Shown here: positions 1-45,282 of the stretch, piece after piece
Numbering within the stretch: position 1 is the stretch's first letter
Layout of the letters: the number at the start of each line of letters is the position of its first letter
Assembly: GCA_023382715.1 (NCBI GenBank)
Contig: JAHDWP010000028.1
Location: forward strand, 1-45,282
Origin: Anaerolineae bacterium
Lineage (GTDB): Bacteria; Chloroflexota; Anaerolineae; Aggregatilineales; Aggregatilineaceae
Length of the DNA: 45,282 nucleotides
Direction: 5' to 3'
The notes under the pieces: generated by a model
Databases searched by the model: none
Told to the model about the DNA's origin: nothing
The model's input: only the letters and a program-made list of their open reading frames with translations
Translations under genes and position numbers: made by a program

Positions 1-277
1 CGCCTCGCCGCCCCCTCTCCACACGCGGAGAGGGGGCAAGGCGGGCGGGGCGAGGCTGGGGGCGAGGTTAACCGGGGTGCTGGCGCAGGGCCAGTGAGCG
101 CGCTCGCGCGCGCGAAAGTTGTCAGCGACTCGCTTGACGCTGGGCATTGACCTCACCCCCGCTCGGCGCTGACGCGCCTCGCCGCCCCCTCTCCACACGC
201 GGAGAGGGGGCAAGGCGGGCGGGGCGAGGTTAACCGGGGCGCTGGCGCAGGGCCAGTGAGCGCGCCCGCGCACGATG
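1..277. repeat. Two direct copies of a family-A palindromic element
   Basis: No gene lies here. A block of about 100 bp at 1-114 recurs almost exactly at 175-274. Both copies start cgcctcgccgccccctctcc, contain the stem ccccctctcc / ggagaggggg, and run on to ctggcgcagggccagtgagc. The spacer at 150-174 carries tgacctcacccccgctcgg, the terminal motif of this family seen elsewhere in the window. The first copy has an extra 12-bp insertion after ggcgagg. A ribosome-binding sequence for the next gene (gagggaga) follows at about 302-309. Confidence 0.8.
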
Positions 278-1230: not shown

Positions 1231-2289
1231 ATGCGCCACGAACTCCAGCTAACCGGCCCGCGCCAGCTTGCCCTCGTGCCTTACGAAGAGCGCCTCTTGC
1301 AGCCCGACGAGATTCGCGCCGGGGCGGTGCTCAGCGGGATCAGTCACGGCACGGAACTGAACCTCTACCGGGGCACGGCCCCGTTCCACAACCGCCGCTT
1401 TGACCCCGACCTGCGCCTGTTCCTGCCCGCCGCAGAGGGCGCGCTCTATCCCACCTCGCTGGGCTACGAGTGGGTCGGGCGCGTGATCGAGGTCGGCGCG
1501 GAGGTGTCCGGCTTCGCGGTTGGCGACCTGATCCACCTGCCGCTCGGCCACCGGGCGACGCACACCGTCCGTCCCGCCGAGCGGACGATGATCGGCAGGG
1601 TGGAGCCATTGCCGCCCGGCCTGACGCCCGACGCCGCGATCACCCTGGCCCTGGCGGGCGTGGCCCTGCAGGCGATCCACGACGCGCACATCAAGGTCGG
1701 CGACCGCGTGGCGGTCTTCGGGCTGGGCGTCATCGGGCTGCTGGCGATCCAGTTGGCGCGGCTGGACGGCGCGGCCTGGATTGACGCGATTGACCCGCTG
1801 CCGGGCCGCCGTGCGCTGGCCGAGCGGCTCGGCGCAGACCGGGCGCTCGATCCCGCTGCTGAAGATGTGGCCTATGCCATCAAGACGGCCAGCCTGCAGC
1901 GCGGCGCAGACGTAGCCATCGAGCTTTCGGGCAGCGACGCGGCCCTGCACGAGGCGGTGCGCAGCGTGCGCGTGGCGGGGACGGTCGTCGCCGGCGGCTT
2001 CTACCAGGGCGGGGCGGCGGCGCTGCGCCTGGGCGAAGAGTGGCACCACAACCGCGTGACGATGGTTTCCAGCATGGGCGTGTGGGACTGTCCGCACCGC
2101 GACTATCCGGCATGGGATCGGGCGCGCGTCCACGCGACGGCCACCCAACTGCTGGCCGAGGGACGATTGCGCGCCGACGGGCTGATCACGCACCGCTTCC
2201 CCCTGGCGGCGGCGGCGGACGCCTACGCGCTGCTCGACCGGCACCCGGCGGACGCGGTGAAGGTCGTGCTCACCTACGAATCCGCCTGA
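1231..2289 (+). CDS. MDR-superfamily (zinc-type) dehydrogenase
   Basis: A 352-residue medium-chain dehydrogenase/reductase. The N-terminal GroES-like half (about 1-150) carries SGISHGTEL where classical alcohol dehydrogenases have the catalytic Cys, and GYEWVGRVIEVG just after it. The nucleotide-binding fold starts at VAVFGLGVIGLLAIQLA (GxGxxG). The usual catalytic-zinc Cys and the four structural-zinc Cys are absent, as in the BchC-like and threonine-dehydrogenase-like MDR branch, so zinc use is doubtful. An aggaga ribosome-binding site lies 4 nt before the ATG. It is probably co-transcribed with the preceding amidohydrolase and the following exporter. The substrate cannot be told from sequence. 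Confidence 0.88.
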   Translation: MRHELQLTGPRQLALVPYEERLLQPDEIRAGAVLSGISHGTELNLYRGTAPFHNRRFDPDLRLFLPAAEGALYPTSLGYEWVGRVIEVGAEVSGFAVGDLIHLPLGHRATHTVRPAERTMIGRVEPLPPGLTPDAAITLALAGVALQAIHDAHIKVGDRVAVFGLGVIGLLAIQLARLDGAAWIDAIDPLPGRRALAERLGADRALDPAAEDVAYAIKTASLQRGADVAIELSGSDAALHEAVRSVRVAGTVVAGGFYQGGAAALRLGEEWHHNRVTMVSSMGVWDCPHRDYPAWDRARVHATATQLLAEGRLRADGLITHRFPLAAAADAYALLDRHPADAVKVVLTYESA

Positions 2290-2307
2290 GACGGCGTGCC
2301 ACCCTCT

Positions 2308-2925
2308 ATGGACGCTACCTTCTTTCTGCGTGGGCTGGTCATCGGCTTCTCCATCGCCGCGCCGGTGGGGCCGATCGGCGTGCTGTGCATTCGCCGGACG
2401 CTGGCCGGTGGGCGGCTGCACGGGCTGGTGTCGGGGCTGGGCGCGGCGACCGCCGACGCGAGCTACGGCGCGATCGCCAGCTTCGGGCTGACGGCGATCT
2501 CCGGCGTGCTGGTGGATCAGCAGGTCTGGCTGCGGCTGATCGGCGGGGCGTTCCTGTGCGCGCTGGGCGCGCGTACCTTCCTGGCCCGTCCAGCCAGCGA
2601 AGCCGCATCTGCCAGCCGAAGCGGGCTGCTTGGCGCGTACTTCTCCACCTTCGCCCTGACGCTGACCAACCCGCTGACGATCCTCTCCTTCGCGGCCATC
2701 TTCGCCGGGCTGGGCATCGCCGAGACGGGGCGGGACTACGGCGCGGCGCTGATCCTGGTGGCGGGCGTGTTCGCTGGCTCGGCGACGTGGTGGCTGCTGC
2801 TCAGCGGCGGCGTGAGCCTGCTGCGCGAGCGCTTCACCCCGCGCCGCATGCGTTGGGTTAACCGGCTGAGCGGGGCGGCGCTGATCGCCTTTGGGCTGGC
2901 GGCGCTGGCCGGCGGGCTGGTGTAG
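2308..2925 (+). CDS. LysE/RhtB-family exporter
   Basis: A 205-residue inner-membrane protein with about six hydrophobic segments. It opens with the LysE family hallmark IAAPVGPIGVLCIRRTL near residues 15-31 and has the second-half TNPLTILSFAAIFAGLG motif. The family exports amino acids or related small metabolites by proton antiport. I chose the ATG at 2308 because family members begin a few residues before the first helix; an in-frame GTG at 2296 would add four residues. It begins 18 nt after the dehydrogenase stop with no clear Shine-Dalgarno, suggesting translational coupling. The exported compound may be the product of the two upstream enzymes; this is inference from position only. Confidence 0.88.
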   Translation: MDATFFLRGLVIGFSIAAPVGPIGVLCIRRTLAGGRLHGLVSGLGAATADASYGAIASFGLTAISGVLVDQQVWLRLIGGAFLCALGARTFLARPASEAASASRSGLLGAYFSTFALTLTNPLTILSFAAIFAGLGIAETGRDYGAALILVAGVFAGSATWWLLLSGGVSLLRERFTPRRMRWVNRLSGAALIAFGLAALAGGLV

Positions 2926-3253
2926 GGCGGCGGCGCATTGACCCCACTCTGTGGCCCCTCCCCGCTGGCGATACCGTTGGCGAAAGGCCTCCGTAGGGAC
3001 GTATTGCAATACGCCCCATGTGTGCCAACTTAAAGCTTCTGAGTGCGCAGTACGGGCGGAATGCCCCTCCCTGGCCCCCGGCGGAGCCAGGGAGGGGGAA
3101 GTGCGGTGCACCGCGATCAAAGTCCCCCTCTCTAGCTCGGCTGGAGAGGGGGATTTAGGGGGAGAGGCGTAGGGGCACAAGGCCCTACGCCCCTACGGAG
3201 TGCGGTGGAACAGCCCCCTGCCTGATAGGTTTTGTCCGCCCCCAGGGCGACAA
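2926..3253. repeat. Intergenic region of palindromic elements
   Basis: No gene is seen in this 328-bp gap between two converging genes. A family-B palindrome lies at about 2991-3018 (core cgtattgcaatacg). A fold-back of ccctccctggc against gccagggaggg follows at about 3063-3098. Then comes a copy of ctctagctcggctggagag with flanking C and G runs at about 3122-3160, and a degenerate second palindrome gtaggggc/gcccctac at about 3169-3197. A closely similar composite occurs at 42450-42583. Confidence 0.7.
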
Positions 3254-4651
3254 TCAGATGATGTTCAGGCCGTCCAGCAGGACGAGCGTCACCAGGACGG
3301 GCGTGACGAACTTGACCACGCCGAAGAAGGCCCGGATCACGCGCTCGTTGCGCAGAGCGCCATCGTTGCTCAGGGCGCTCTTCACCTGGTCATAGCCCCA
3401 TACCCAGCCGACAAACAGGGCCAGGAACAGCCCGCCCACCGGCATCAGGATATTCGATGTGGCGTAGTCGTACAGGTCGAACATCGTCTTGTCGAAGAGC
3501 TTGAAATCGTCGAGCGTGCTGTTCGACAGCGCAGCGGGCGCGCCGACCAGCACCAGCAAGCCCATCGTCAGCAGCGTGGCCTTGACGCGCGAAAGGCCGA
3601 GCTGCTCGTTGAGCACGGCGACCGGCACCTCGAACAGCGAGAGCATGGCCCCCGTCGCAGCGATGGCTGTCAGCACGAAGAAGAAGATGATGAAGACTTC
3701 GCCGAGCGGCATCGAAGCGAACACCGCGGGAATGGTGATGAAGAGCAGCGACGGGCCGGCGTCGGGGCTGAAGCCGAAGGCGAACACTGCCGGGAAAATG
3801 GCCATGCCCGCCAGCAGCGACACGGACAGATCGGCGAGCATCACCCGGCTGGCTGTGACGGGGATGTTCTGATTGCGCCGGAAGTAGCTGCCATAGGTGA
3901 TCATCGTGCCCATGCCGATGGACAGCTTGAAGAAAGCCAGGCCCATCGCCACCAACAGGACTTCGCCGCTCAGCTTGCTGAAATCGGGGCGCAGGAGGAA
4001 CTTCACACCCTCCCCCGCGCCGTCCAGCGTCAGGCTGCGCACGCAGACGGCGATCAGCAGGACGAACAACACGGGCATCAGGCGCTTGGTTGCGCGCTCA
4101 ATGCCCTTCGACACGCCGAGCATGATGATCGCGCCGACCACCGCCAGCACCACCCACTGCCAGATCAGCGACTGCGCCGGATCGGTCGCCATGTCGTTGA
4201 AAACGCCGGAGGTCTGGGTCGGATCGGTCGAGAGGATCGAGCCGGTCAGGGCCTTGAAGATGTAGGCGAACACCCACCCGGCGACCTCAGTGTAGAAAGC
4301 CAGAATCAGAAAGGCGGACAGGCAGCCAGCCGCGCCGATGAGCCACCACGGCTGGCGTTTAGGGGCCAGCACGCGCAGCGTCTGGATGGCGTCAGCGCGC
4401 GCGCGGCGTCCCAGCATGTGCTCCGAGATCATCACCGGCAGCCCGACCAGCAGCGTGGCGATGACGTAGACGAGGATGAAGGCCGCGCCGCCATTCTCGC
4501 CGGTCAGATAGGGGAACTTCCAGATGTTGCCCAGGCCCACTGCCGAGCCGAGGGTAGCGGCCAGCACGCCCAGGCTCGTGCTGAAACCATCGCGGGCGAC
4601 TAACCCTTTGGCGCTGCGTTTCACGCCCATCTCTTGGGTATCGCTTGTCAT
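3254..4651 (-). CDS. Sodium-dependent transporter, NSS/SNF family
   Basis: A 465-residue polytopic membrane protein of the neurotransmitter:sodium symporter family, which imports amino acids or other amines with Na+. The TM1 signature is clear at residues 30-50: LGVLAATLGSAVGLGNIWKF, followed by FPYLTGENGGAAFILVY. TM6-region and later helices match bacterial members such as TnaT/MhsT, with about 11-12 helices; the substrate is not predictable. The ATG is preceded by taggaga at about 11 nt. An in-frame upstream GTG is not available because that frame stops at once. The gene stands alone, converging on the LysE exporter. A perfect CRP/FNR-type box lies about 80 bp upstream. Confidence 0.95.
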   Translation of the reverse strand: MTSDTQEMGVKRSAKGLVARDGFSTSLGVLAATLGSAVGLGNIWKFPYLTGENGGAAFILVYVIATLLVGLPVMISEHMLGRRARADAIQTLRVLAPKRQPWWLIGAAGCLSAFLILAFYTEVAGWVFAYIFKALTGSILSTDPTQTSGVFNDMATDPAQSLIWQWVVLAVVGAIIMLGVSKGIERATKRLMPVLFVLLIAVCVRSLTLDGAGEGVKFLLRPDFSKLSGEVLLVAMGLAFFKLSIGMGTMITYGSYFRRNQNIPVTASRVMLADLSVSLLAGMAIFPAVFAFGFSPDAGPSLLFITIPAVFASMPLGEVFIIFFFVLTAIAATGAMLSLFEVPVAVLNEQLGLSRVKATLLTMGLLVLVGAPAALSNSTLDDFKLFDKTMFDLYDYATSNILMPVGGLFLALFVGWVWGYDQVKSALSNDGALRNERVIRAFFGVVKFVTPVLVTLVLLDGLNII

Positions 4652-4726
4652 GAGTGCACCGATCTCCTACAAAAGTCCCGACCAGGACTGTACGAGTCTG
4701 GCCGGGAGAAGCGAAAAAATCCAAGA

Positions 4727-4742
4727 TGTGAATGACTTCACA
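4727..4742. promoter_or_regulatory. CRP/FNR-family type operator upstream of the NSS transporter
   Basis: The sequence is TGTGA-N6-TCACA, identical to the classical half-site consensus bound by E. coli CRP and related regulators. It is centred about 84 bp upstream of the transporter start. A possible -10 (TACAGT, minus strand, 4692-4687) would put the box near -54 relative to transcription start. The site is seen directly; its use by a CRP-like protein is inference. Confidence 0.5.
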
Positions 4743-4859
4743 AGCCGGGCGAACCATAGCAAGGATCGCGCGTTCTGTCAACAACACCCCGCGCCGCGTC
4801 AGGGTGCGCGCAAAGGCCGAGAGCGACCTGCGTGACGCCGGGCGAAATGAAGCGCCGCA

Positions 4860-5204
4860 CCCCTGCGGCGCAATACGCCTTTATCCCGCTGGCCTCGCGC
4901 AGGGGCGCTGCTCTGTGTCACGCGACGTAGGGTTATCCTGAACCGGCGCGGGAAGCGGGCGGATTTACCTCTCCCCTCATTCCCCTCTCCACACGCGGAG
5001 AGGGGGCGGCGAGGCGCGTCAGCGCCGAGCGGGGGTGAGGTCAACCGGCTTCTGGCGCAACGCGGTCGCCCGTGCCACTGCCGATAAATGATAAACCCCT
5101 GTGGTCGGATTCCGTAGCAGAACCCTACAGCGGGTGATACTCTGTGCGCCCCGGCTGATCTCACCCCTGCTCGGCGCTAGCGAGGCTGCGGACGAGGTTG
5201 ATGA
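4860..5204. repeat. Composite palindromic repeats upstream of the 182-aa gene
   Basis: Between the NSS transporter start (4651) and 5260 no gene is seen. The region 4900-4970 (ctgtgtcacgcgacgtaggg, then gcgggaagcgggcggattta) recurs at 9530-9605 and, in part, at 38885-38940. A family-A element occupies 4967-5047, with acacgcggagagggggcggc and gggggtgaggtcaacc. Segment 5085-5155 holds an inverted relative of the first block. A second, shorter family-A copy lies at 5157-5204 and ends with gaggttgatgagc, which contains the putative -35 of the next gene. Confidence 0.7.
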
Positions 5205-5227
5205 GCCGGCGGCGGATGCGCTATAGT
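5198..5227 (+). promoter_or_regulatory. Putative sigma-70-type promoter for the 182-aa gene
   Basis: TTGATG at 5198-5203 and TATAGT at 5222-5227 are separated by 18 bp. Transcription would start near 5234, giving a leader of about 25 nt before the GTG at 5260. The -35 hexamer lies at the end of a palindromic repeat copy. Confidence 0.5.
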
Positions 5228-5259
5228 CAGGACGGAGCCGGATCGCCAGGAACCTACTC

Positions 5260-5808
5260 GTGAGCCAGACCCCGCGCCAGCCGCAGACCCCTCTCCAGCG
5301 CACGCTGATCACCCTGGCGCTGCTTGTCGGGTCAGCCCTGCCGGTGATGATCGCGTTTGTGCTCGTCACGTCCACCAACGATGGCGGCAACCCGCTCGAC
5401 CGCATCCCCGATTACAGCGAGCCGTTGGTGGAATCGCTGACCATGCCCTTTGACCGCGCAGAACCGATCGAGACGGAGTATCGCTACTACGGGCGGGTGC
5501 GGATCGTGGTAGAGGGCAGCGGGGTGCTGCCGGGGGTGGGGAGGCTCGACGCGCTCTATCTATTCGCCGGCGAGGACGGGGCGCCGCTCGACCCGCTGCA
5601 GCTCACCGCGCGCGGGCTGACCATTGACGGCGCGCTCGCCCTGGACGCGCTCAAGCTGGCGGTGGAGCCACCTGACTACGCCGGCGACCATCTCTACAGC
5701 GCGCTCTACGACCTGGGCAAAGACTACCGGCGCGTGCGCTTCGGCGTCTCCGGGGCCGGGCCGGGCGGGACGGGCGTGCTGACCGTCACCATCGTCCAGT
5801 TGCAGTGA
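5260..5808 (+). CDS. Conserved hypothetical membrane-anchored protein
   Basis: An unrecognised 182-residue protein. Residues 1-14 are polar and basic, followed by one hydrophobic helix (about 15-41, ITLALLVGSALPVMIAFVLV). The remainder (about 45-182) would be extracytoplasmic and looks beta-rich: it alternates strands such as YRYYGRVRIVVEGSG and ends in a GVLTVTIVQLQ strand. There are no cysteines and no catalytic motif. The start is the GTG at 5260, preceded by agga at 8-9 nt. A promoter-like sequence lies 33 bp upstream. The stop lies 13 nt from the 3' end of the converging epimerase gene. It could be a small binding or structural protein of the envelope; function is unknown. Confidence 0.75.
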   Translation: MSQTPRQPQTPLQRTLITLALLVGSALPVMIAFVLVTSTNDGGNPLDRIPDYSEPLVESLTMPFDRAEPIETEYRYYGRVRIVVEGSGVLPGVGRLDALYLFAGEDGAPLDPLQLTARGLTIDGALALDALKLAVEPPDYAGDHLYSALYDLGKDYRRVRFGVSGAGPGGTGVLTVTIVQLQ

Positions 5809-7369: not shown

Positions 7370-9481
7370 CTAACGCGATGCCGCGATCTGCACAGTGCCC
7401 AGCGGCAGCAGCCCATCCGCCCCGTCGTCCCCGCTGATCGGCAGGCGCTCGTGGGGCGGATCGAGCGCATAGACGGCCACAGCCAGCCCGTACCCGCCCG
7501 GCGGCACGCCCGGCGGCACGAGCAGGCCGTGCGTGTCGCTCACCACCTGGCCGGGCGTCCAGGTCGTCGTGGGAGCCAGGTTATTGGCAGGCTCGGCGTC
7601 GTGCTGGGCGGCCAGCGACCCGTCCGGCGCGAGGAGCTGCACCGTGACCTTGTAGCGCGCAGCGAGCGGCGCGTCTGCTGTCCAGAACAGCGTCACGCCG
7701 AGCGCGTCGCCGGGGCGGGCGTCCTGGGCGCTGAGGGCGTAGCCGGTCAGGCGCAGCGCGTCGCCGAAGTGGGCGTCCAGCCGGACGGCGGGCGCGTCCG
7801 GCGCGGGGCCGAGCACGGCGTACTGGGCCAGGCGCACGTCGCCGTACCACGTCGAGGCAACCGGGTACGCCCCCGCGTCGAGCGTCGCCGCGACCACGCG
7901 GCGCGGATCGCGCTCCTCCTCGCCCCAGAAGACGGCGAAGATGCGCGCGTGCTCGGCGAGCACCGCCTCGACTTCGGCCTGCGTCGCGGCATCATCCCCG
8001 CCCAGGCCGCGCGGCAGCGGGTAGAGCGGCGCGTCCCCCCGGTAATAGTAGCTGAACACCTCGACCTGGTTGGGCGCGATGAGGAGGATCGCGTCGCCGG
8101 GGTGCGCATCGCGGCGGACAGCGGCGGCGATGGCCCGGTAGTCGGCACGGGCGTAGGCGGGGTCGTTGTACAGCGCGTCGAGCGCCCCTGCTGCCCGCAT
8201 CACCACCAGGAAGGCGCATACTGCTGCCAGCATCCGCCCGACGGCGCGCGTTTCGCGGGTGTTCAGCGGGCGGATGCGCCCGCCATCTGTCCACAGCCGT
8301 CGCGCCCCTTCCGCCAGCAGCAGGGCCAGGGCGATCTGTGCGGGCAGCAGGAACTTGAGGTTGGCCGGGCGGTACGCGCCGGAGACGAACAGCGCGCCCG
8401 TGACCACGACCGCCCACACCAGCGGCAGCGCGAGTCGCCAGCCCCGCGCACGCCCGCGCCCCGGCCACAGCGCGGCGACCAGCAGCAGGCCCGGCCATAG
8501 GAAATGCAGCAGAGCCACATTCCCTGCCGTGCTGCCGTAGACGAGCCAGGTGAGCACGGTGCGCAACTGTTCGCCGAGGGCCAGGGCCTCGCCGGTGCGC
8601 GGCCAGGCCGTGACCTGCTCCCAGGCGGTGGGCAGCCAGGGGGCGAAGAGAGCCAGGGTCAGCAGGCTGAGCGCGAGATAGGCGACGAGGGGCCTCATCC
8701 CCCCGGCCCTGGGAGACGCCGGCCAGCGGCTTCGCCAGGCGAGCCAGGTGAGAAGGATGAGGCCCTGGGCGAGCAGGGTGAAGGCGAACGAATACTGCGT
8801 GTACAGCCCGGCGGCGTTGACCAGGGCCAGCGCCAGCGCCAGCCTGAATCGCAGCGGCGCAGAGGTCGCGGAGAAATACCTGTTTTCTGCCTTTCCTCTG
8901 CGTGCTCCGCGTCCCTGCGCTGATTCTTCGCCCGCTCGTGGGGATATATTGTGATACGCCCCCCCGCTCTCTGCGGTGAAGCCACCCAGCCAGCGCGCGA
9001 AGAGAGCCATGCTCGCCGCGCTGAGCAGGGCGAGCTGTGCGTACATGCGCGTCTCCTGGCTGTAGTAAACCGCAAAGGGGCTGAGCGCCACAAACAGCCC
9101 GGCCAGCGTCCCCGCCGCCCGCCCGAACAGCGTCCGCCCCAGGGCGATCGTGAGCGCCACCGCCAGCACGCCCTCCAGCGCCGAGAGCGCGCGCAGCCCG
9201 AATTCGCTGCGCCCCGCCAGCGCGATCCAGCCCTTCAGCGCCAGGTAGTAGCCCGGCGGGTGAATATCACGCCCGGCAGCACCAACCAGGTCGGGGATGC
9301 TGCGCTCGGCCAGGCGCAGGCTGTTGCCCTCGTCGTTCCACAGCGATTGCGCTTCCAGGTCATGAAAGCGCACGGCGCAAGCCAGCAGCAGCACGATCAG
9401 CGGCGCGATCCAGGGGCGACGATGCAGGATGCTCCCGATCTGCCCGGCAACGCTCCATAACGCGAACAGCCGTCCGGTCAC
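7370..9481 (-). CDS. Membrane glycosyltransferase, GT39/ArnT-like, carrying inserted repeat sequence
   Basis: A 703-residue polytopic transferase of the GT-C fold, expected to move a sugar from a polyprenyl-phosphate donor on the outer face of the membrane. Family motifs: SLWNDEG near the N-terminus with the acidic pair after the first helix, DIHPPGYYLALKGW, and SQETRMYAQLALL. About ten helices follow. The last 140 residues form a soluble beta-sandwich-like domain (RLTGYALSAQDARPGDALGVTLFW). I chose the GTG at 9481, which follows aaaggg at 7 nt; the longer open frame reads through family-A repeat sequence. Between two helices a Gly/Arg/Glu-rich stretch of about 38 residues is encoded by palindromic repeat DNA at about 8850-8968. 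It heads the minus-strand run with DUF6512. Confidence 0.88.
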   Translation of the reverse strand: MTGRLFALWSVAGQIGSILHRRPWIAPLIVLLLACAVRFHDLEAQSLWNDEGNSLRLAERSIPDLVGAAGRDIHPPGYYLALKGWIALAGRSEFGLRALSALEGVLAVALTIALGRTLFGRAAGTLAGLFVALSPFAVYYSQETRMYAQLALLSAASMALFARWLGGFTAESGGAYHNISPRAGEESAQGRGARRGKAENRYFSATSAPLRFRLALALALVNAAGLYTQYSFAFTLLAQGLILLTWLAWRSRWPASPRAGGMRPLVAYLALSLLTLALFAPWLPTAWEQVTAWPRTGEALALGEQLRTVLTWLVYGSTAGNVALLHFLWPGLLLVAALWPGRGRARGWRLALPLVWAVVVTGALFVSGAYRPANLKFLLPAQIALALLLAEGARRLWTDGGRIRPLNTRETRAVGRMLAAVCAFLVVMRAAGALDALYNDPAYARADYRAIAAAVRRDAHPGDAILLIAPNQVEVFSYYYRGDAPLYPLPRGLGGDDAATQAEVEAVLAEHARIFAVFWGEEERDPRRVVAATLDAGAYPVASTWYGDVRLAQYAVLGPAPDAPAVRLDAHFGDALRLTGYALSAQDARPGDALGVTLFWTADAPLAARYKVTVQLLAPDGSLAAQHDAEPANNLAPTTTWTPGQVVSDTHGLLVPPGVPPGGYGLAVAVYALDPPHERLPISGDDGADGLLPLGTVQIAASR
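8850..8968. repeat. Palindromic elements C and B inserted in frame in the GT39 gene
   Basis: Positions 8851-8920 contain gcggcgcagaggtcgcggag and then cctctgcgtgctccgcgtc, the arms of the family-C element found intergenically at 20149, 22976 and 24154. Next to it, 8930-8968 holds cgtggggatatattgtgata and cgccccccc, a degraded family-B palindrome. The reading frame stays open through both, adding a low-complexity loop to the protein. Confidence 0.7.
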
Positions 9482-9827
9482 CGCTGCCCTTTCTCTTCTA
9501 CTCCCGCGCCGCTGCAACACCGCAGAGCGCGGCAAAGTGTCACCCGTTGTAGGGGTATCCCAACCGGACACGTCGTAGGGGTATATCGAGCCAGCGCGGG
9601 AAGCGGGCGGATTTACCTCACCCCTCATTCCCCTCTCCACACGCGGAGAGGGGACGGAACCCCAGCGGATCTCTCCCTCTCTGCGGGTGGAGAGGGGGCC
9701 GGGGGGTGAGGTCAACCGGCTTCTGGCGCGACCCGGGCGCTTGTGTCGCCATCGGCAAATAGTAAAACCCTAAAACCCTAAAACCCTATGACCAGATTTC
9801 GCAGCAAAATCCTACGTCGCGCCGCCC
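9482..9827. repeat. Intergenic region: family-A element and an 8-bp microsatellite
   Basis: No gene is seen. Segment 9530-9605 repeats the block found at 4905-4970. A family-A element spans about 9606-9718; it contains cacacgcggagaggggacgg and ends gggggtgaggtcaacc. At 9763-9788 the unit TAAAACCC is repeated three times, followed by a relative of the 5095-5130 sequence (gatttcgcagcaaaatccta). Confidence 0.7.
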
Positions 9828-14273: not shown

Positions 14274-15992
14274 CTAACGGGGTTTCCGGCGATGGTCGCG
14301 GGCCAGCAGAATCAGCAGCCGCCCGGCGAAAAAGGCGCTGCCCCCTCCCGCCACGAACAGCACAGCCAGCAGCACGGTGAAGAGACGGCCAGCGCGCTGC
14401 GCGTCCGGCAGCAGCATCCCCCCGGAGATCGGCTGAACCGGCGGCGCGAGCGCGATCGTCACCGGGTCGGAGATGTAGATCTGCCCGTCTGGGCCGGACG
14501 CAGAGGCGACCAGGGTCAGCGGCCCGGTGCGCGCCACGCTGAACTGTGCCGTCCACGCGCCGCCCGCCGACGCCTGGGTGATGGCCAGCGCCGCCCCGCT
14601 GGCCTGCTCGCGCACGACGACGGTCGCGTCCGGTGCGGCCACGCCGCGCGCCACAAGCGGGCCGGGCGCGCGTACCTCGCCGGAAGCGGGCGCGTCAATG
14701 CGCGGCCTGGCCCCAGCGAGCACAAGAGAGGCAGAGGTGGGTGACGCGAGCGCCGAGTCGAGCGAGACAGGCGTGCGCGTCGGCGGGACGGGGCTGGGCG
14801 TCAGCGTAGCCGTTGGAACGGGCGTCTCTGTCGGCGCGGGCGTAAGGGTATCTGTCTCGGTCGGGGACGGCGTCTCGGTCAGGGTGACGCTGGCTGTCGG
14901 AGAGGGCGTCGCGGTGACGGTGGGCGTGTCCGTCCAGCTTTGCGCGACCTGAGTCAGGCGATCGGCCAGCAGCGCCTCGACGGTCGCGTCGAGATCGGGT
15001 GTCGCCGAAGGGACGGGCGCCAGCGTTGGCGTGTCCGATGGGGATGGCGTCTCCGTCGGCGCGGGCGTGAAGGTGGCGGTGCCCGTCGGCAGCAGGGCCA
15101 CTTCCGGCAGCGTGCGCGTCGGCGCGGGGGTGCGGCTGGCGGTGGCTGTGGGCGACGCGGTCGCTGTCGGCGAATGGGTCGGCGTCGGGCTGAAGGTGGC
15201 TGTGGGCGGCAGGGTCGCGGTCAGCGTCGGCGTGCTGGTGGATGTGGCGCTGGGCGTGACGCTCGGTGTGGGCGAGGGCGTCGCCGTGGGAGTGGCGCTC
15301 GGCGAGGGCGTCAGCGTGACGGTGGGCGTGTCCGTCCAGCTTTGCGCGGTCTCCGTCATACGAACCGCCAGCAACGCCTCGACGGTTGTGCCCAGGTCTG
15401 GCGTCGCCGAAGGGACGGGCGTCAGCGTCGGCGTGGCAGTTGCGGTGAGAGTGGCCGTTGAGGTGGGCGTAGGCGTCGCCGAAGCGGTGGGCGCGGGCGT
15501 CCAGGTGAGGGTAGCTGTTGGCGGCAGGTGCATCGCAAAGCCGACCGGCACGCGCGGGCTGGTCGCCCCGTCTTCTGCGACAGCGACCACAGCCAGAGCG
15601 TGCTCGCCCTCCAGCAGGCCGCCGGGCAGTTCTGCCGCCCACGCGCCATCTTCTCCGGCGACAGCGATAGCGATCAGCTCCTGGCCGTCGTACACCTGGA
15701 GGATGTCGCCCGGCCCGGCCTGCCCGCTCAAGAGCAGCGGCGCGCCGGCGTAGGTGCCCGCCAGGGCCAGCGGCGCGACCACCGGCGGAGCGACGGTCGC
15801 GCGCCCGCTCACTGCGGCCAGAGATGCGGTGGGAGTCGGCGCGGCGTCCGCCGGAGACTCAGCCCGGCTTGCGTCGCCATTGTAGAAGCGCAGCGCGAAG
15901 AGCAGCCCTGCCGCGCCCGAAGTCAGCAGCAGGCCAGCCAGCAGCAGGGCGTCGAGACGGCGCACGGCGCGCCGCCGCACCTCGAGGCTCAC
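14274..15992 (-). CDS. Thr/Pro-rich surface protein with two anchors
   Basis: A 572-residue protein. After an N-terminal hydrophobic segment (about 14-36) comes a beta domain (LLLSGQAGPGDILQVYDGQE), which reads like an Ig-like or carboxypeptidase-regulatory fold. Residues about 155-415 are low complexity, iterating T-x-T-P and P-S-A-T units that would form a stiff stalk. Two copies of a 29-residue unit sit inside it, each with the core TVEALLA.R.T..AQSWTDTP. A second beta domain follows and a C-terminal TM helix (LFTVLLAVLFVAGGGSAFFA) plus basic tail RRKPR. The start is a GTG that overlaps the upstream HhH gene by 4 nt. Probably a surface stalk; heavy O-glycosylation is likely given nearby GT39 enzymes, which is inference. 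Confidence 0.85.
   Translation of the reverse strand: MSLEVRRRAVRRLDALLLAGLLLTSGAAGLLFALRFYNGDASRAESPADAAPTPTASLAAVSGRATVAPPVVAPLALAGTYAGAPLLLSGQAGPGDILQVYDGQELIAIAVAGEDGAWAAELPGGLLEGEHALAVVAVAEDGATSPRVPVGFAMHLPPTATLTWTPAPTASATPTPTSTATLTATATPTLTPVPSATPDLGTTVEALLAVRMTETAQSWTDTPTVTLTPSPSATPTATPSPTPSVTPSATSTSTPTLTATLPPTATFSPTPTHSPTATASPTATASRTPAPTRTLPEVALLPTGTATFTPAPTETPSPSDTPTLAPVPSATPDLDATVEALLADRLTQVAQSWTDTPTVTATPSPTASVTLTETPSPTETDTLTPAPTETPVPTATLTPSPVPPTRTPVSLDSALASPTSASLVLAGARPRIDAPASGEVRAPGPLVARGVAAPDATVVVREQASGAALAITQASAGGAWTAQFSVARTGPLTLVASASGPDGQIYISDPVTIALAPPVQPISGGMLLPDAQRAGRLFTVLLAVLFVAGGGSAFFAGRLLILLARDHRRKPR
14913..15435. repeat. Two 120-bp direct repeats inside the Thr/Pro-rich gene
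   Basis: Segments 14913-15033 and 15316-15435 both begin gtgacggtgggcgtgtccgt and end with the sequence around gccgaagggacgggcg and agcgt.ggcgtg. They encode the two copies of the TVEALLA...AQSWTDTP unit. DNA identity is highest at both ends and lower in the middle, and the region between and around is itself made of short iterations. Confidence 0.75.
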
Positions 15993-23981: not shown

Positions 23982-24012
23982 GCGTGCCTGCTCCGCCATC
24001 CCCGGCCCTTCG

Positions 24013-24139
24013 CCCACAAAGGAAGCTGCTGGCGAAATGTCTCGTAGGGGCGTATGGCCATACGCCCCTACGAGGGCGCAGCAGAGCAGCGCCCCCTACG
24101 GGAGGCGGCCAGAGGGCGGGGCCTTCTGCCGCAGCAGAC
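24013..24139. repeat. Family-B element, opposite orientation to 17078
   Basis: The perfect palindrome 24041-24074 has arms ctcgtaggggcgtatgg and complement. Left flank cccacaaaggaagctgctgg and right flank ccttctgccgcagcag are the reverse complements of the flanks at 17078-17176. The palindrome centre is ggcc here and gc between tt and aa there. Confidence 0.8.
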
Positions 24140-24153
24140 TTCCGAAAGCTCAT

Positions 24154-24226
24154 CGCCGAGGCGCAGAGAGGGCTGAGGAAAACAAATGATACGCTCTTCT
24201 CTGCGCCCTCTGCGCCCTCTGCGGTT
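24154..24226. repeat. Family-C palindromic element
   Basis: cgccgaggcgcagagagggc opens and ctctgcgccctctgcgg closes the element; the interior is AT-rich (aggaaaacaaatgatacgct). Confidence 0.7.
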
Positions 24227-24291
24227 CCAGAATTTCGCATCCCCAGCCTTGCCCTGCCAGGGTTTGCGCGCGCCTGTTACGGCAGCCCCTT

Positions 24292-24321
24292 TTGGGCAGA
24301 CCCCGCCAGATACGGTATAAT
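24292..24321 (+). promoter_or_regulatory. Promoter of the MBL-fold gene
   Basis: TTGGGC (24292-24297) and a perfect TATAAT (24316-24321), 18 bp apart. The leader would be about 45 nt. Confidence 0.65.
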
Positions 24322-24373
24322 TTCCGCGATTCTTAGCGAAATTCGATCGGGGTGGGCACGCAAGGAACTGAGC

Positions 24374-25012
24374 ATGGACATCACCTGGTATGGGCATAGC
24401 TGCTTTCGGGTGGTTGAGCGTGGCTATGCCACCGTCGTCACCGATCCGTTCGACGCCAGCCTGGGCTACGAGCCGCTGCGCCTGAAGGCGGACCTCGTCA
24501 CAGTGAGCCACGACGCGCCTGGCCACAGCTATCTGGCGGGCGTCAAAGGCGTTACGCACGTCATCCAGGGGCCGGGCGAATACGAGATCGGCGGAGTTTT
24601 CATCATCGGCGTGGCCACTTACGACCAGACGCGCGAAGTGCCGCGCCGCAACGTGGTCTACGTGCTGGACTACAACACCCTGACCGTGGCTCACCTGGGC
24701 GATCTGGACCACGTGCCGAGCCAGTCCATGATTGACGCGCTGGGGCCGGTGGACATCGCCCTGGTGCCGGTGGGCGGGGGCAGCGGGCTGTCGTCGGGGC
24801 AGGCCGCAGAGGTGATCAGCCTGCTGGAGCCGAGCATCGTCATCCCGATGCACTTCCAGACGCCCGATCTGCGTGGCCTGGAGCTGGACCCGGTGGATCG
24901 TTTCTTGAAAGAGATGGGCCTCAACAGCATCGAGACACAGGCGATGCTGCGCATTGCGCCTGGAGTGTTGCCGGAGCAGACGCAGGTGGTGCTGCTCGAT
25001 TACCAGCGCTAG
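24374..25012 (+). CDS. MBL-fold protein, UlaG-like, with degenerate metal motif
   Basis: A 212-residue metallo-beta-lactamase-fold protein of the UlaG/YycJ-like type. It opens MDITWYGHSCFRV with H8. The expected THxHxDH loop reads VSHDAPGHSYL: H46 and H51 are kept, but the second His is Ala48 and the Asp is Gly50. Later ligands are present: HLGDLDH (107-113) and PMHF. Loss of two of the five first-site ligands suggests altered metal binding or a non-hydrolytic role; similar variants are known in related phyla. The ATG at 24374 follows a good promoter, with aaggaa 8 nt upstream. It is probably co-transcribed with the 99-residue gene downstream (94 nt). Confidence 0.85.
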   Translation: MDITWYGHSCFRVVERGYATVVTDPFDASLGYEPLRLKADLVTVSHDAPGHSYLAGVKGVTHVIQGPGEYEIGGVFIIGVATYDQTREVPRRNVVYVLDYNTLTVAHLGDLDHVPSQSMIDALGPVDIALVPVGGGSGLSSGQAAEVISLLEPSIVIPMHFQTPDLRGLELDPVDRFLKEMGLNSIETQAMLRIAPGVLPEQTQVVLLDYQR

Positions 25013-44938: not shown

Positions 44939-45282
44939 CGCAAAGGCCGACAGCGACTCGCCGGGCGCCGAGCATTTACCTCACCCCCAGCCGCGCTGCG
45001 CTTGGCTTGCCCCCTCTCCATCTGCGTGGAGAGGGGGCGGTGAGGCGCGTCAGCGCCGAGCGGGGGTGAGGTCAACCCGGGCGCGGCAGAGCAGCGCCCC
45101 TACCGCCTGACAGGTTTTGCGCGCACCCGGCGTGCGGGATGCGCGCAAAGGCTGGCGCCGAGCATTTACCTCACCCCCAGCCTCGCTACGCTCGGCTTGC
45201 CCCCTCTCCGCGTGTGGAGAGGGGGCAGTGAGGCGCGTCAGCGCCGAGCGGGGGTGAGGTCAACCCGGGCGCGGCAGAGCAG
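44939..45282. repeat. Tandem pair of family-A elements at the window end
   Basis: Copy one spans about 44939-45097 and copy two about 45137-45282, running off the window. Both read gcgcgcaaagg, gcgccgagcatttacctcac, ccccctctcc.../...ggagagggggc, cgtcagcgccgagcgggggt, gaggtcaacccgggcgcggc. Copy one has an extra gacagcgactcgccggg. No gene is seen beyond 44784. Confidence 0.8.

What the first reader, a model, noticed from the sequence alone, without database searches (positions are those of the whole stretch)
8850..8968. Two palindromic elements sit in frame inside a glycosyltransferase gene
Sequence matching intergenic families C and B lies between two membrane-helix codons of the GT39 gene, adding about 38 Gly/Arg/Glu-rich residues to a loop without breaking the frame. 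It shows that the elements insert into coding DNA and that one protein has taken up this sequence. The element seems to favour ends that leave a reading frame open.
Basis: partly seen in the sequence, partly recalled or inferred. Interest (0 to 1): 0.6.

Follow-up and report, generated by a model that had tools for sequence, protein, structure and literature searches.

The report
Repeat DNA translated in enzyme loop
A membrane sugar-transfer enzyme of Anaerolineales bacteria carries mobile-looking hairpin DNA inside its gene, read as extra protein in one inner-side loop, and the same loop of the same enzyme has been filled, in frame, by unrelated hairpin repeats in several related lineages.

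Summary
In the GT39/PMT_2 gene (window 7373-~9484, minus strand) two palindromic repeats, B (8934-8966) and C (8846-8931), lie in frame between two membrane helices and add about 32-42 residues compared with short-loop orthologues. The orthologues of the four other genus genomes also carry element DNA in this loop: B+C in two, a C variant in one, C with a nested family-A element in one.

It is not a one-off. In the order, 27 of 87 readable loops are long. Outside the genus 16 long loops were searched; 9 are DNA repeated elsewhere in their own genome, from different families. On a tree the trait needs 11 changes, at least 8 on well-supported branches. Paralogues: 0 of 70 rows gain 10 residues or more. 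The second loop is also hit.

Best reading: intergenic palindromic repeats insert widely, selection removes most genic copies, and this disordered, probably cytoplasmic loop is a permissive site that keeps in-frame copies. Frame-seeking ends found no support. In-frame REP insertion is known; repeated filling of one homologous loop by unrelated families is the new part.

The parts
7373..9484 (-). GT39-like (PMT_2) membrane glycosyltransferase gene, GT-C fold; start approximate
   Evidence: Pfam PF13231 E 1.2e-8; a match in 143 of 154 order genomes; AF2 model pLDDT 76.7, best PDB match ArnT 5ezm E 1e-8 with TM 0.40/0.50
8846..8931 (-). family C hairpin element (CGCAGAG units), decayed copy, in frame
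   Evidence: own-genome matches over query 50-135; 201 motif hits against 36 control
8934..8966 (.). family B palindrome (GTAGGGGCGTAT..ATACGCCCCTAC type), decayed copy, in frame
   Evidence: 8 copies in the window; clean copies in the G002 and G004 loop; 31 places of the pattern in own genome, control 0
8966..8981 (-). scrap of a further C left end (TTCACCGCAGAGAG), at the site where G001 and G003 have their C element
   Evidence: by eye; alignment
8864..8971 (-). codons of residues 172-207 of the model: disordered loop between helices 145-176 and 208-229 (TM4-TM5)
   Evidence: AlphaFold2 pLDDT below 50 for 172-207
8694..8716 (-). possible degenerate end of a family A element in the second loop (TM6-TM7), in frame
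   Evidence: by eye: resembles 9683-9707; G002 has a fuller A-type element there

Best explanation
Shown: the extra loop is intergenic palindromic repeat DNA inside a conserved membrane glycosyltransferase gene, read in frame. The same TM4-TM5 loop is filled in several lineages of the order with different repeats that are multicopy in their own genomes, and the tree forces at least eight changes. Inferred: the repeats insert at many places; copies that break a gene are lost by selection; this disordered loop, probably on the cytoplasmic side away from the catalytic extracytoplasmic loop, tolerates 25-80 extra residues, so in-frame copies survive there and pile up (B next to C, A nested in C). 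Once in, the element decays. What moves the elements was not found.
For: Self-repeat BLAST with adjacent coding DNA as built-in control: of 16 long loops searched outside the genus, 9 are repeated in their own genome (G033: 44 other places listed, 143 nt at 94% the best; also G139, G087, G080, G050, G067, G022, G005 with 5 places, G073 with 3 short weak places). All 5 genus genomes carry B, C or A in the loop; C motif 76-201 hits per genus genome against 10-36 control, B 4-148 places against 0. Tree: 11 changes, 8 forced by starred branches. Paralogues: 0 of 70 rows gain 10 aa or more, maximum +3; 0 of 24 paralogue loci (some the same gene) of the genus hold B or C inside the ORF, one holds a 9-base A motif. 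Insert pLDDT below 50. Loop codons lack the third-position excess of the flanks for G000/G002 (p=0.019). Fold z below -3 in 8 of 27 long loops, 1 of 27 downstream and 0 of 27 upstream controls.
Against: Of the 16, four long loops match only themselves (G051, G044, G095, G024), G037 has one weak hit, and G047 and G016 are undecided because the lists were cut; 6 further long loops were not searched. In G016 the C motif is near chance (7 hits, 4 control), yet G016 counts as 'repeat' in the tree. Codon bias is not significant for G000/G004 (0.069) and G002/G004 (0.116), and for G002/G004 the first-plus-second-position rate in the loop equals the flanks (p=0.87), which does not speak for relaxed constraint. 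19 of 27 long loops have no fold z below -3. Distant paralogue rows are about 20 residues shorter than the query, so an insert of that size could hide in the spread. The cytoplasmic side is inferred from helix counting (GT-C topology recalled). Tolerance alone does not say why this gene. The named relatives are MAGs.
Confidence: 0.8

Rival explanations
1. One old insertion in an ancestor, kept since, whose sequence drifted until it looks like different families.
For: All five genus members are occupied; B+C shared by G000, G002 and G004 at 64-72% aa identity; G016 of another genus also has a C-like loop.
Against: Relatives with short loops lie between occupied lineages; 8 changes forced by starred branches; the filling DNA matches each genome's own repeats (G033 94% over 143 nt).
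Confidence: 0.06
2. Targeted insertion: the elements or their unknown transposase recognise a sequence at this loop, so the site is a mutational hot spot and not only a tolerant one.
For: Same loop hit by at least three structural kinds of element; stacking B-C and A inside C (by eye); precedent of different REPs at about the same recB site in two Xanthomonas species (PMC3733652, section 15).
Against: Unrelated families would have to share a target; a second loop of the same protein is also hit, which fits tolerance; I did not derive or test a target motif.
Confidence: 0.12
3. The insert is adaptive: lineages gain by lengthening or changing this loop (regulation, partner binding) and repeats are just handy raw material.
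For: Recurrence in one gene and not in the paralogues looked at; occupied in 5 of 5 genus genomes; G002/G004 first-plus-second-position rate in the loop is no higher than in the flanks.
Against: Residue content differs entirely between lineages; loop codon positions change equally in G000/G002; predicted disordered.
Confidence: 0.1
4. Assembly artefact: repeats spuriously joined into the gene in draft or metagenome assemblies.
For: Named relatives are MAGs and repeats cause misassembly.
Against: Both flanks are the same gene in the right order and frame in many independent assemblies; stops_inside is 'none' for nearly all listed matches.
Confidence: 0.03

Closest known systems
Intragenic GTAG and CGTC REPs (Di Nocera and others 2013, PMC3733652; section 15 read whole, other passages by word search)
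   Same: Short palindromic multicopy repeats, mostly intergenic, a minority inside genes; different REPs at about the same recB site in two Xanthomonas species; GTAG REPs reported from Chloroflexi
   Different: Here one homologous loop of one membrane protein is filled by different families (GTAG palindromes, CCCCTCTCC-type hairpins, CACAGAG-unit hairpins) in several lineages of one order; no convincing RAYT was found in the own genome
Rickettsia palindromic elements (RPE; passages in PMC3733652, rest recalled)
   Same: In-frame palindromic inserts that add residues to functional proteins
   Different: RPE-4/6 belong to the CGTC-tagged kind and hit many genes; here tags and families differ and one gene is the recurrent target
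Enterobacterial RU elements found intragenically (PMC2759123, listing and start of abstract only)
   Same: Small MITE-like repeats discussed as a source of new peptides
   Different: Other families and hosts; nothing about one recurrently filled loop in the part seen

Membership tests
GTAG REP (RAYT-mobilised) | palindrome tagged by GTAG at one end | tested here: met
   family B clean copies GTAGGGGCGTATNGCNATACGCCCCTAC, symmetric so the tag is at both ends; 31 places in own genome, control 0; the window's genic copy reads GTGG
GTAG REP (RAYT-mobilised) | multicopy and mainly intergenic | tested here: inconclusive
   B multicopy; placement was looked at for C only: 62 places, none a two-armed element inside a Pfam-supported gene
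GTAG REP (RAYT-mobilised) | a RAYT (Y1 transposase) gene flanked by the repeat | tested here: not met
   PF01797 at E<=1e-3 finds 2 places: a 131-aa frame followed, by eye, by what looks like TnpB, with no GTAGGG hairpin seen in the 400-nt flanks printed; and a divergent domain at the end of a response-regulator ORF, whose flanks I did not check for B. The genome is 98.6% complete, so a missed gene is possible
Rickettsia RPE | in-frame insertion in a conserved protein-coding gene | tested here: met
Rickettsia RPE | CGTC-tagged sequence family (RPE-4/6) | tested here: not met
   by eye, families A, B and C have other sequences
MITE with known transposase | target-site duplication and matching transposase ends | not tested
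   no empty allele of the same strain available; flanks not compared for duplications
GT39 / PMT_2 GT-C glycosyltransferase | PMT_2 domain above Pfam cut-off and GT-C fold | tested here: met
   35.8 bits against 26.1; ArnT 5ezm best structural match, TM 0.40/0.50, followed by oligosaccharyltransferases

The most novel reading that the evidence does not exclude
The TM4-TM5 loop of this enzyme is a true insertional hot spot: unrelated palindromic elements are preferentially directed to, or selectively favoured at, this one position, so a host gene acts as a recurrent docking site that turns repeat DNA into new protein segments.
Probability: 0.17. Interest if true: 0.82.

Novelty: new variant of a known kind. 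Interest (0 to 1): 0.57.

Why it matters
It gives a replicated natural experiment on how non-coding repeat DNA becomes protein: one homologous loop, several separate fillings by different element families, relatives with the empty loop, and paralogues as a control. That makes a long-standing question (tolerance, targeting or benefit of in-frame REP/RPE insertions) directly testable. It also warns that low-complexity loops of the 'SPPAPLPHGEG' or 'TAESAEG' type in such proteins can be translated intergenic repeats.

Tried and rejected
Frame-seeking ends: no support. The 62 C-motif places have 1 to 6 open frames of 6, and no preference for genes was seen.

Other genic copies in the own genome: the 62 places come from the first 100 listed hits by contig order plus the window, not from a random draw. 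16 lie in stop-free runs with 60 or more codons on both sides. Pfam on one frame of each gave domains only downstream of the element (L106, L126, L148, window 23984-25012), domains spanning a single chance motif (L084 TatD, L145 AAA), or no domain (the other ten). For L084 and L145 a second open frame was not scanned. Genes without a Pfam domain, and elements nearer than 60 codons to a gene end, would be missed.

A RAYT as the mover of family B: PF01797 gave no convincing candidate.

One search aligned two of five loci in the wrong orientation; superseded. In one search G016 was cut to a tail and left out of codon statistics and tree.

Loop survey: 143 order genomes had a match; I looked at 110 of them. 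87 loops were read automatically, 17 more by eye (I saw no family repeat in their first loop, L244 shows a repeat-like stretch in the second), and 6 were not readable with my motifs (L224, L225, L232, L233, L235, L236) and dropped. Only the 87 entered tree and counts. The automatic reading accepted only stop-free loops. 33 matching genomes were not looked at.

Self-repeat search: 6 long loops were not searched (G031, G039, G049, G094, G145, G153). The lists were cut.

Paralogue control: 70 of the 78 rows were typed into; 8 partial rows were left out.

Full report
What is there. The window lies in a 3.88-Mb genome (98.6% complete). Named loci found with the protein are MAGs titled Anaerolineales, Anaerolineae, Anaerolinea, Chloroflexi and, once, Thermoflexus sp.; four of them have the contig lengths of G001-G004. 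The gene at 7373 to about 9484 on the minus strand is a GT39-like PMT_2 protein. The 781-aa ORF is over-extended upstream; orthologues begin about residue 62-74. Between the helix ending FARWL and the helix LALALALVNAAGLYTQY lies GGFTAESGGAYHNISPRAGEESAQGRGARRGKAENRYFSATSAPLRFR. Its DNA holds, in gene order, a scrap of a C left end, a decayed B palindrome and a decayed C hairpin.

Not chance. 17 places of the own genome, itself included, match the query; the others cover C or part of it, and none spans B and C together. The motif AGAGN(1-3)CRCAGAG occurs 201 times against 36 for the reversed control. Over the five genus genomes it occurs 76-201 times against 10-36; in the nine other genomes tested it is near control level, G022 being above it (20 against 7). 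B, as GTAGGGRC-N(4-20)-GYCCCTAC, has 31 places in the own genome, 4 in G001, 148 in G002, 49 in G003, 5 in G004, 107 in G005 and 66 in G067, with controls 0.

The genus. The four other orthologues (73-82% identity) have the same loop filled: G002 and G004 with clean B+C, G003 with a CACAGAG-type C, G001 with a C element holding a nested family A element. C is read in different frames: SPQRRGERRGK in G002 and G004, FTTADTEGTEK and LTAESAEVTEG in G003 and G001; G000 has remains of both. The flank tree joins G004 with G001 (99/96) and G000 with G002 (100/100), whereas B+C is shared by G000, G002 and G004. Just upstream of the loop G004 is as close to G002 as to G001; just past it G004/G002 identity falls to 0.72 and 0.50 while G004/G001 stays at 0.85-0.89. 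The 0.50 window covers G002's own second-loop element, so this is only a weak hint of homologous exchange; replacement of an older B+C state is as possible.

The order. 143 of 154 genomes have a match to the gene. I looked at 110 orthologues: 87 loops read by motif, 17 by eye, 6 not read. In the 87 the distance between the fixed motifs has a mode of 35 residues; 60 are short and 27 long (47-117). For 15 long-loop genomes outside the genus I searched each genome with the loops plus adjacent coding DNA of equal length; G016 was searched with the genus. Nine loops are repeated in their own genome: G033 (44 other places listed, the best 143 nt at 94%), G139, G087, G080, G050 (3 places listed), G067 (a pair of GTAG palindromes), G022 (GTAG palindrome), G005 (5 places) and G073 (3 places, 26-27 nt, E 2e-4 to 8e-4). 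G037 has one weak hit; G047 and G016 are undecided because lists were cut; G051, G044, G095 and G024 match only themselves. Among the control segments of the 15, those of G050, G051 and G067 also hit repeats, in stretches that fall in the second loop, and G037's control has one weak hit; for the others no own-genome hit is listed. In the genus search hits to the nested A element filled the list, so B and C there rest on the pattern counts.

Independence. On a tree of the flanks of the 87 orthologues (195 columns) the label 'repeat in loop' (15 rows, G016 included although unproven) needs 11 changes, 8 of them forced by well-supported branches; shuffled labels need 14.0 on average, so the label is also clustered. 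Changes may be gains or losses, but the filling DNA differs between lineages (by eye): GTAG palindromes (genus, G022, G067, G073), CCCCTCTCC/GGAGAGGGG hairpins (G139, G087, G033, G080, G050, nested A of G001) and CACAGAG-unit hairpins (genus, G016).

Controls. A paralogous GT-C protein searched over the same 154 genomes matched in 51; 70 long rows of 78 have net length differences from -39 to +3 residues (median -21), none of 10 or more gained, and 16 of these rows lie in genomes labelled 'repeat' for the target loop. Because distant rows are shorter than the query, an insert of about 20 residues could hide there. In 24 paralogue loci of the five genus genomes (some the same gene) no B or C motif lies inside the ORF; one has a 9-base A motif. 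The same patterns find a repeat in the loop of 4 of 5 genus target genes and miss the decayed loop copy of the window, so this control is not fully sensitive. Fold z is below -3 in 8 of 27 long loops against 1 of 27 downstream and 0 of 27 upstream segments.

Structure. AlphaFold2 (11 sequences, mean pLDDT 76.7, pTM 0.67) puts residues 172-207 below pLDDT 50 between helices 145-176 and 208-229; the weak patch 257-261 lies in the second loop. The best PDB match is ArnT (E 1e-8, TM 0.40/0.50), followed by oligosaccharyltransferases. Counting helices from the catalytic first extracytoplasmic loop (WNDEG region; GT-C topology recalled) places both invaded loops on the cytoplasmic side.

Selection. 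In the loop, G000 and G002 differ equally at the three codon positions (10, 10, 10 of 44) but not in the flanks (63, 50, 149 of 616), p = 0.019. G000/G004 (9, 11, 13) gives 0.069 and G002/G004 (9, 4, 8) gives 0.116. For G002/G004 the first-plus-second-position rate equals that of the flanks (p = 0.87) and third positions differ less in the loop (8 of 44 against 225 of 613, p = 0.014), which fits a younger or exchanged loop (all). So relaxed constraint is suggested by one pair and not proven. The flanks are conserved, so the gene is kept.

How it most likely works. Palindromic repeats multiply and insert over the genome by an unidentified enzyme; the only PF01797 hits in the own genome are a TnpA-like frame beside a likely TnpB (by eye) and a divergent domain. 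Copies in genes are purged: among 62 places looked at none was a two-armed element inside a Pfam-supported gene. The disordered loop between TM4 and TM5 tolerates in-frame copies, so this position fills repeatedly, also by stacking, and the copies then decay. Insertion is shown by comparison; tolerance as the cause is inferred.

Against what is known. Intragenic REPs, and different REPs at about the same recB site of two Xanthomonas species, are in print (PMC3733652: section 15 read in full, other passages by word search). Five searches (the top listings only) for palindromic in-frame inserts, Chloroflexi or Anaerolineae palindromic repeats, transmembrane loops and Rickettsia elements showed no title or abstract start on a recurrently filled membrane-protein loop; subscription journals are mostly outside that library.

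Noticed in passing
window 8694-8716; second-loop stretches: The second probable cytoplasmic loop (TM6-TM7) of the same enzyme carries other in-frame repeat-like stretches in several genomes: an A-type element in G002, PPPAPLPVHGEG in G014, a C-like THRRGAEGQ stretch in G081, ALTPRPPLPQGEGE in G037, and STQHSALG / STRYSAL type repeats in L078, G050 and G051.
   Followed up: partly
GT39 gene in G001, G002, G004 (L051, L048, L049): The flank tree and the loop disagree (G004 groups with G001 but shares the B+C loop with G002), with an identity drop just past the loop: a weak hint of homologous exchange of the loop between species.
   Followed up: partly
L148 (G000:C26), ORF 1593-5360 minus: A 1256-codon ORF with an N-terminal response-regulator domain and a weak Y1-transposase-like domain at its C-terminus; an odd architecture.
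   Followed up: no
window 14778-15540: Diverged direct repeats of about 60-210 nt inside the 14274-15992 minus-strand ORF, probably a low-complexity linker.
   Followed up: no
window 1-230 and 44964-45282: Family A copies lie at both ends of the window, which is a whole contig, suggesting that the assembly broke in this repeat.
   Followed up: no
GT39 C-terminal region, about residues 560-700 of the model: A beta-rich domain; NPC2 and the Wzt C-terminal domain appear as short weak matches in the fold search (ranks 29 and 45; aligned part not checked).
   Followed up: no
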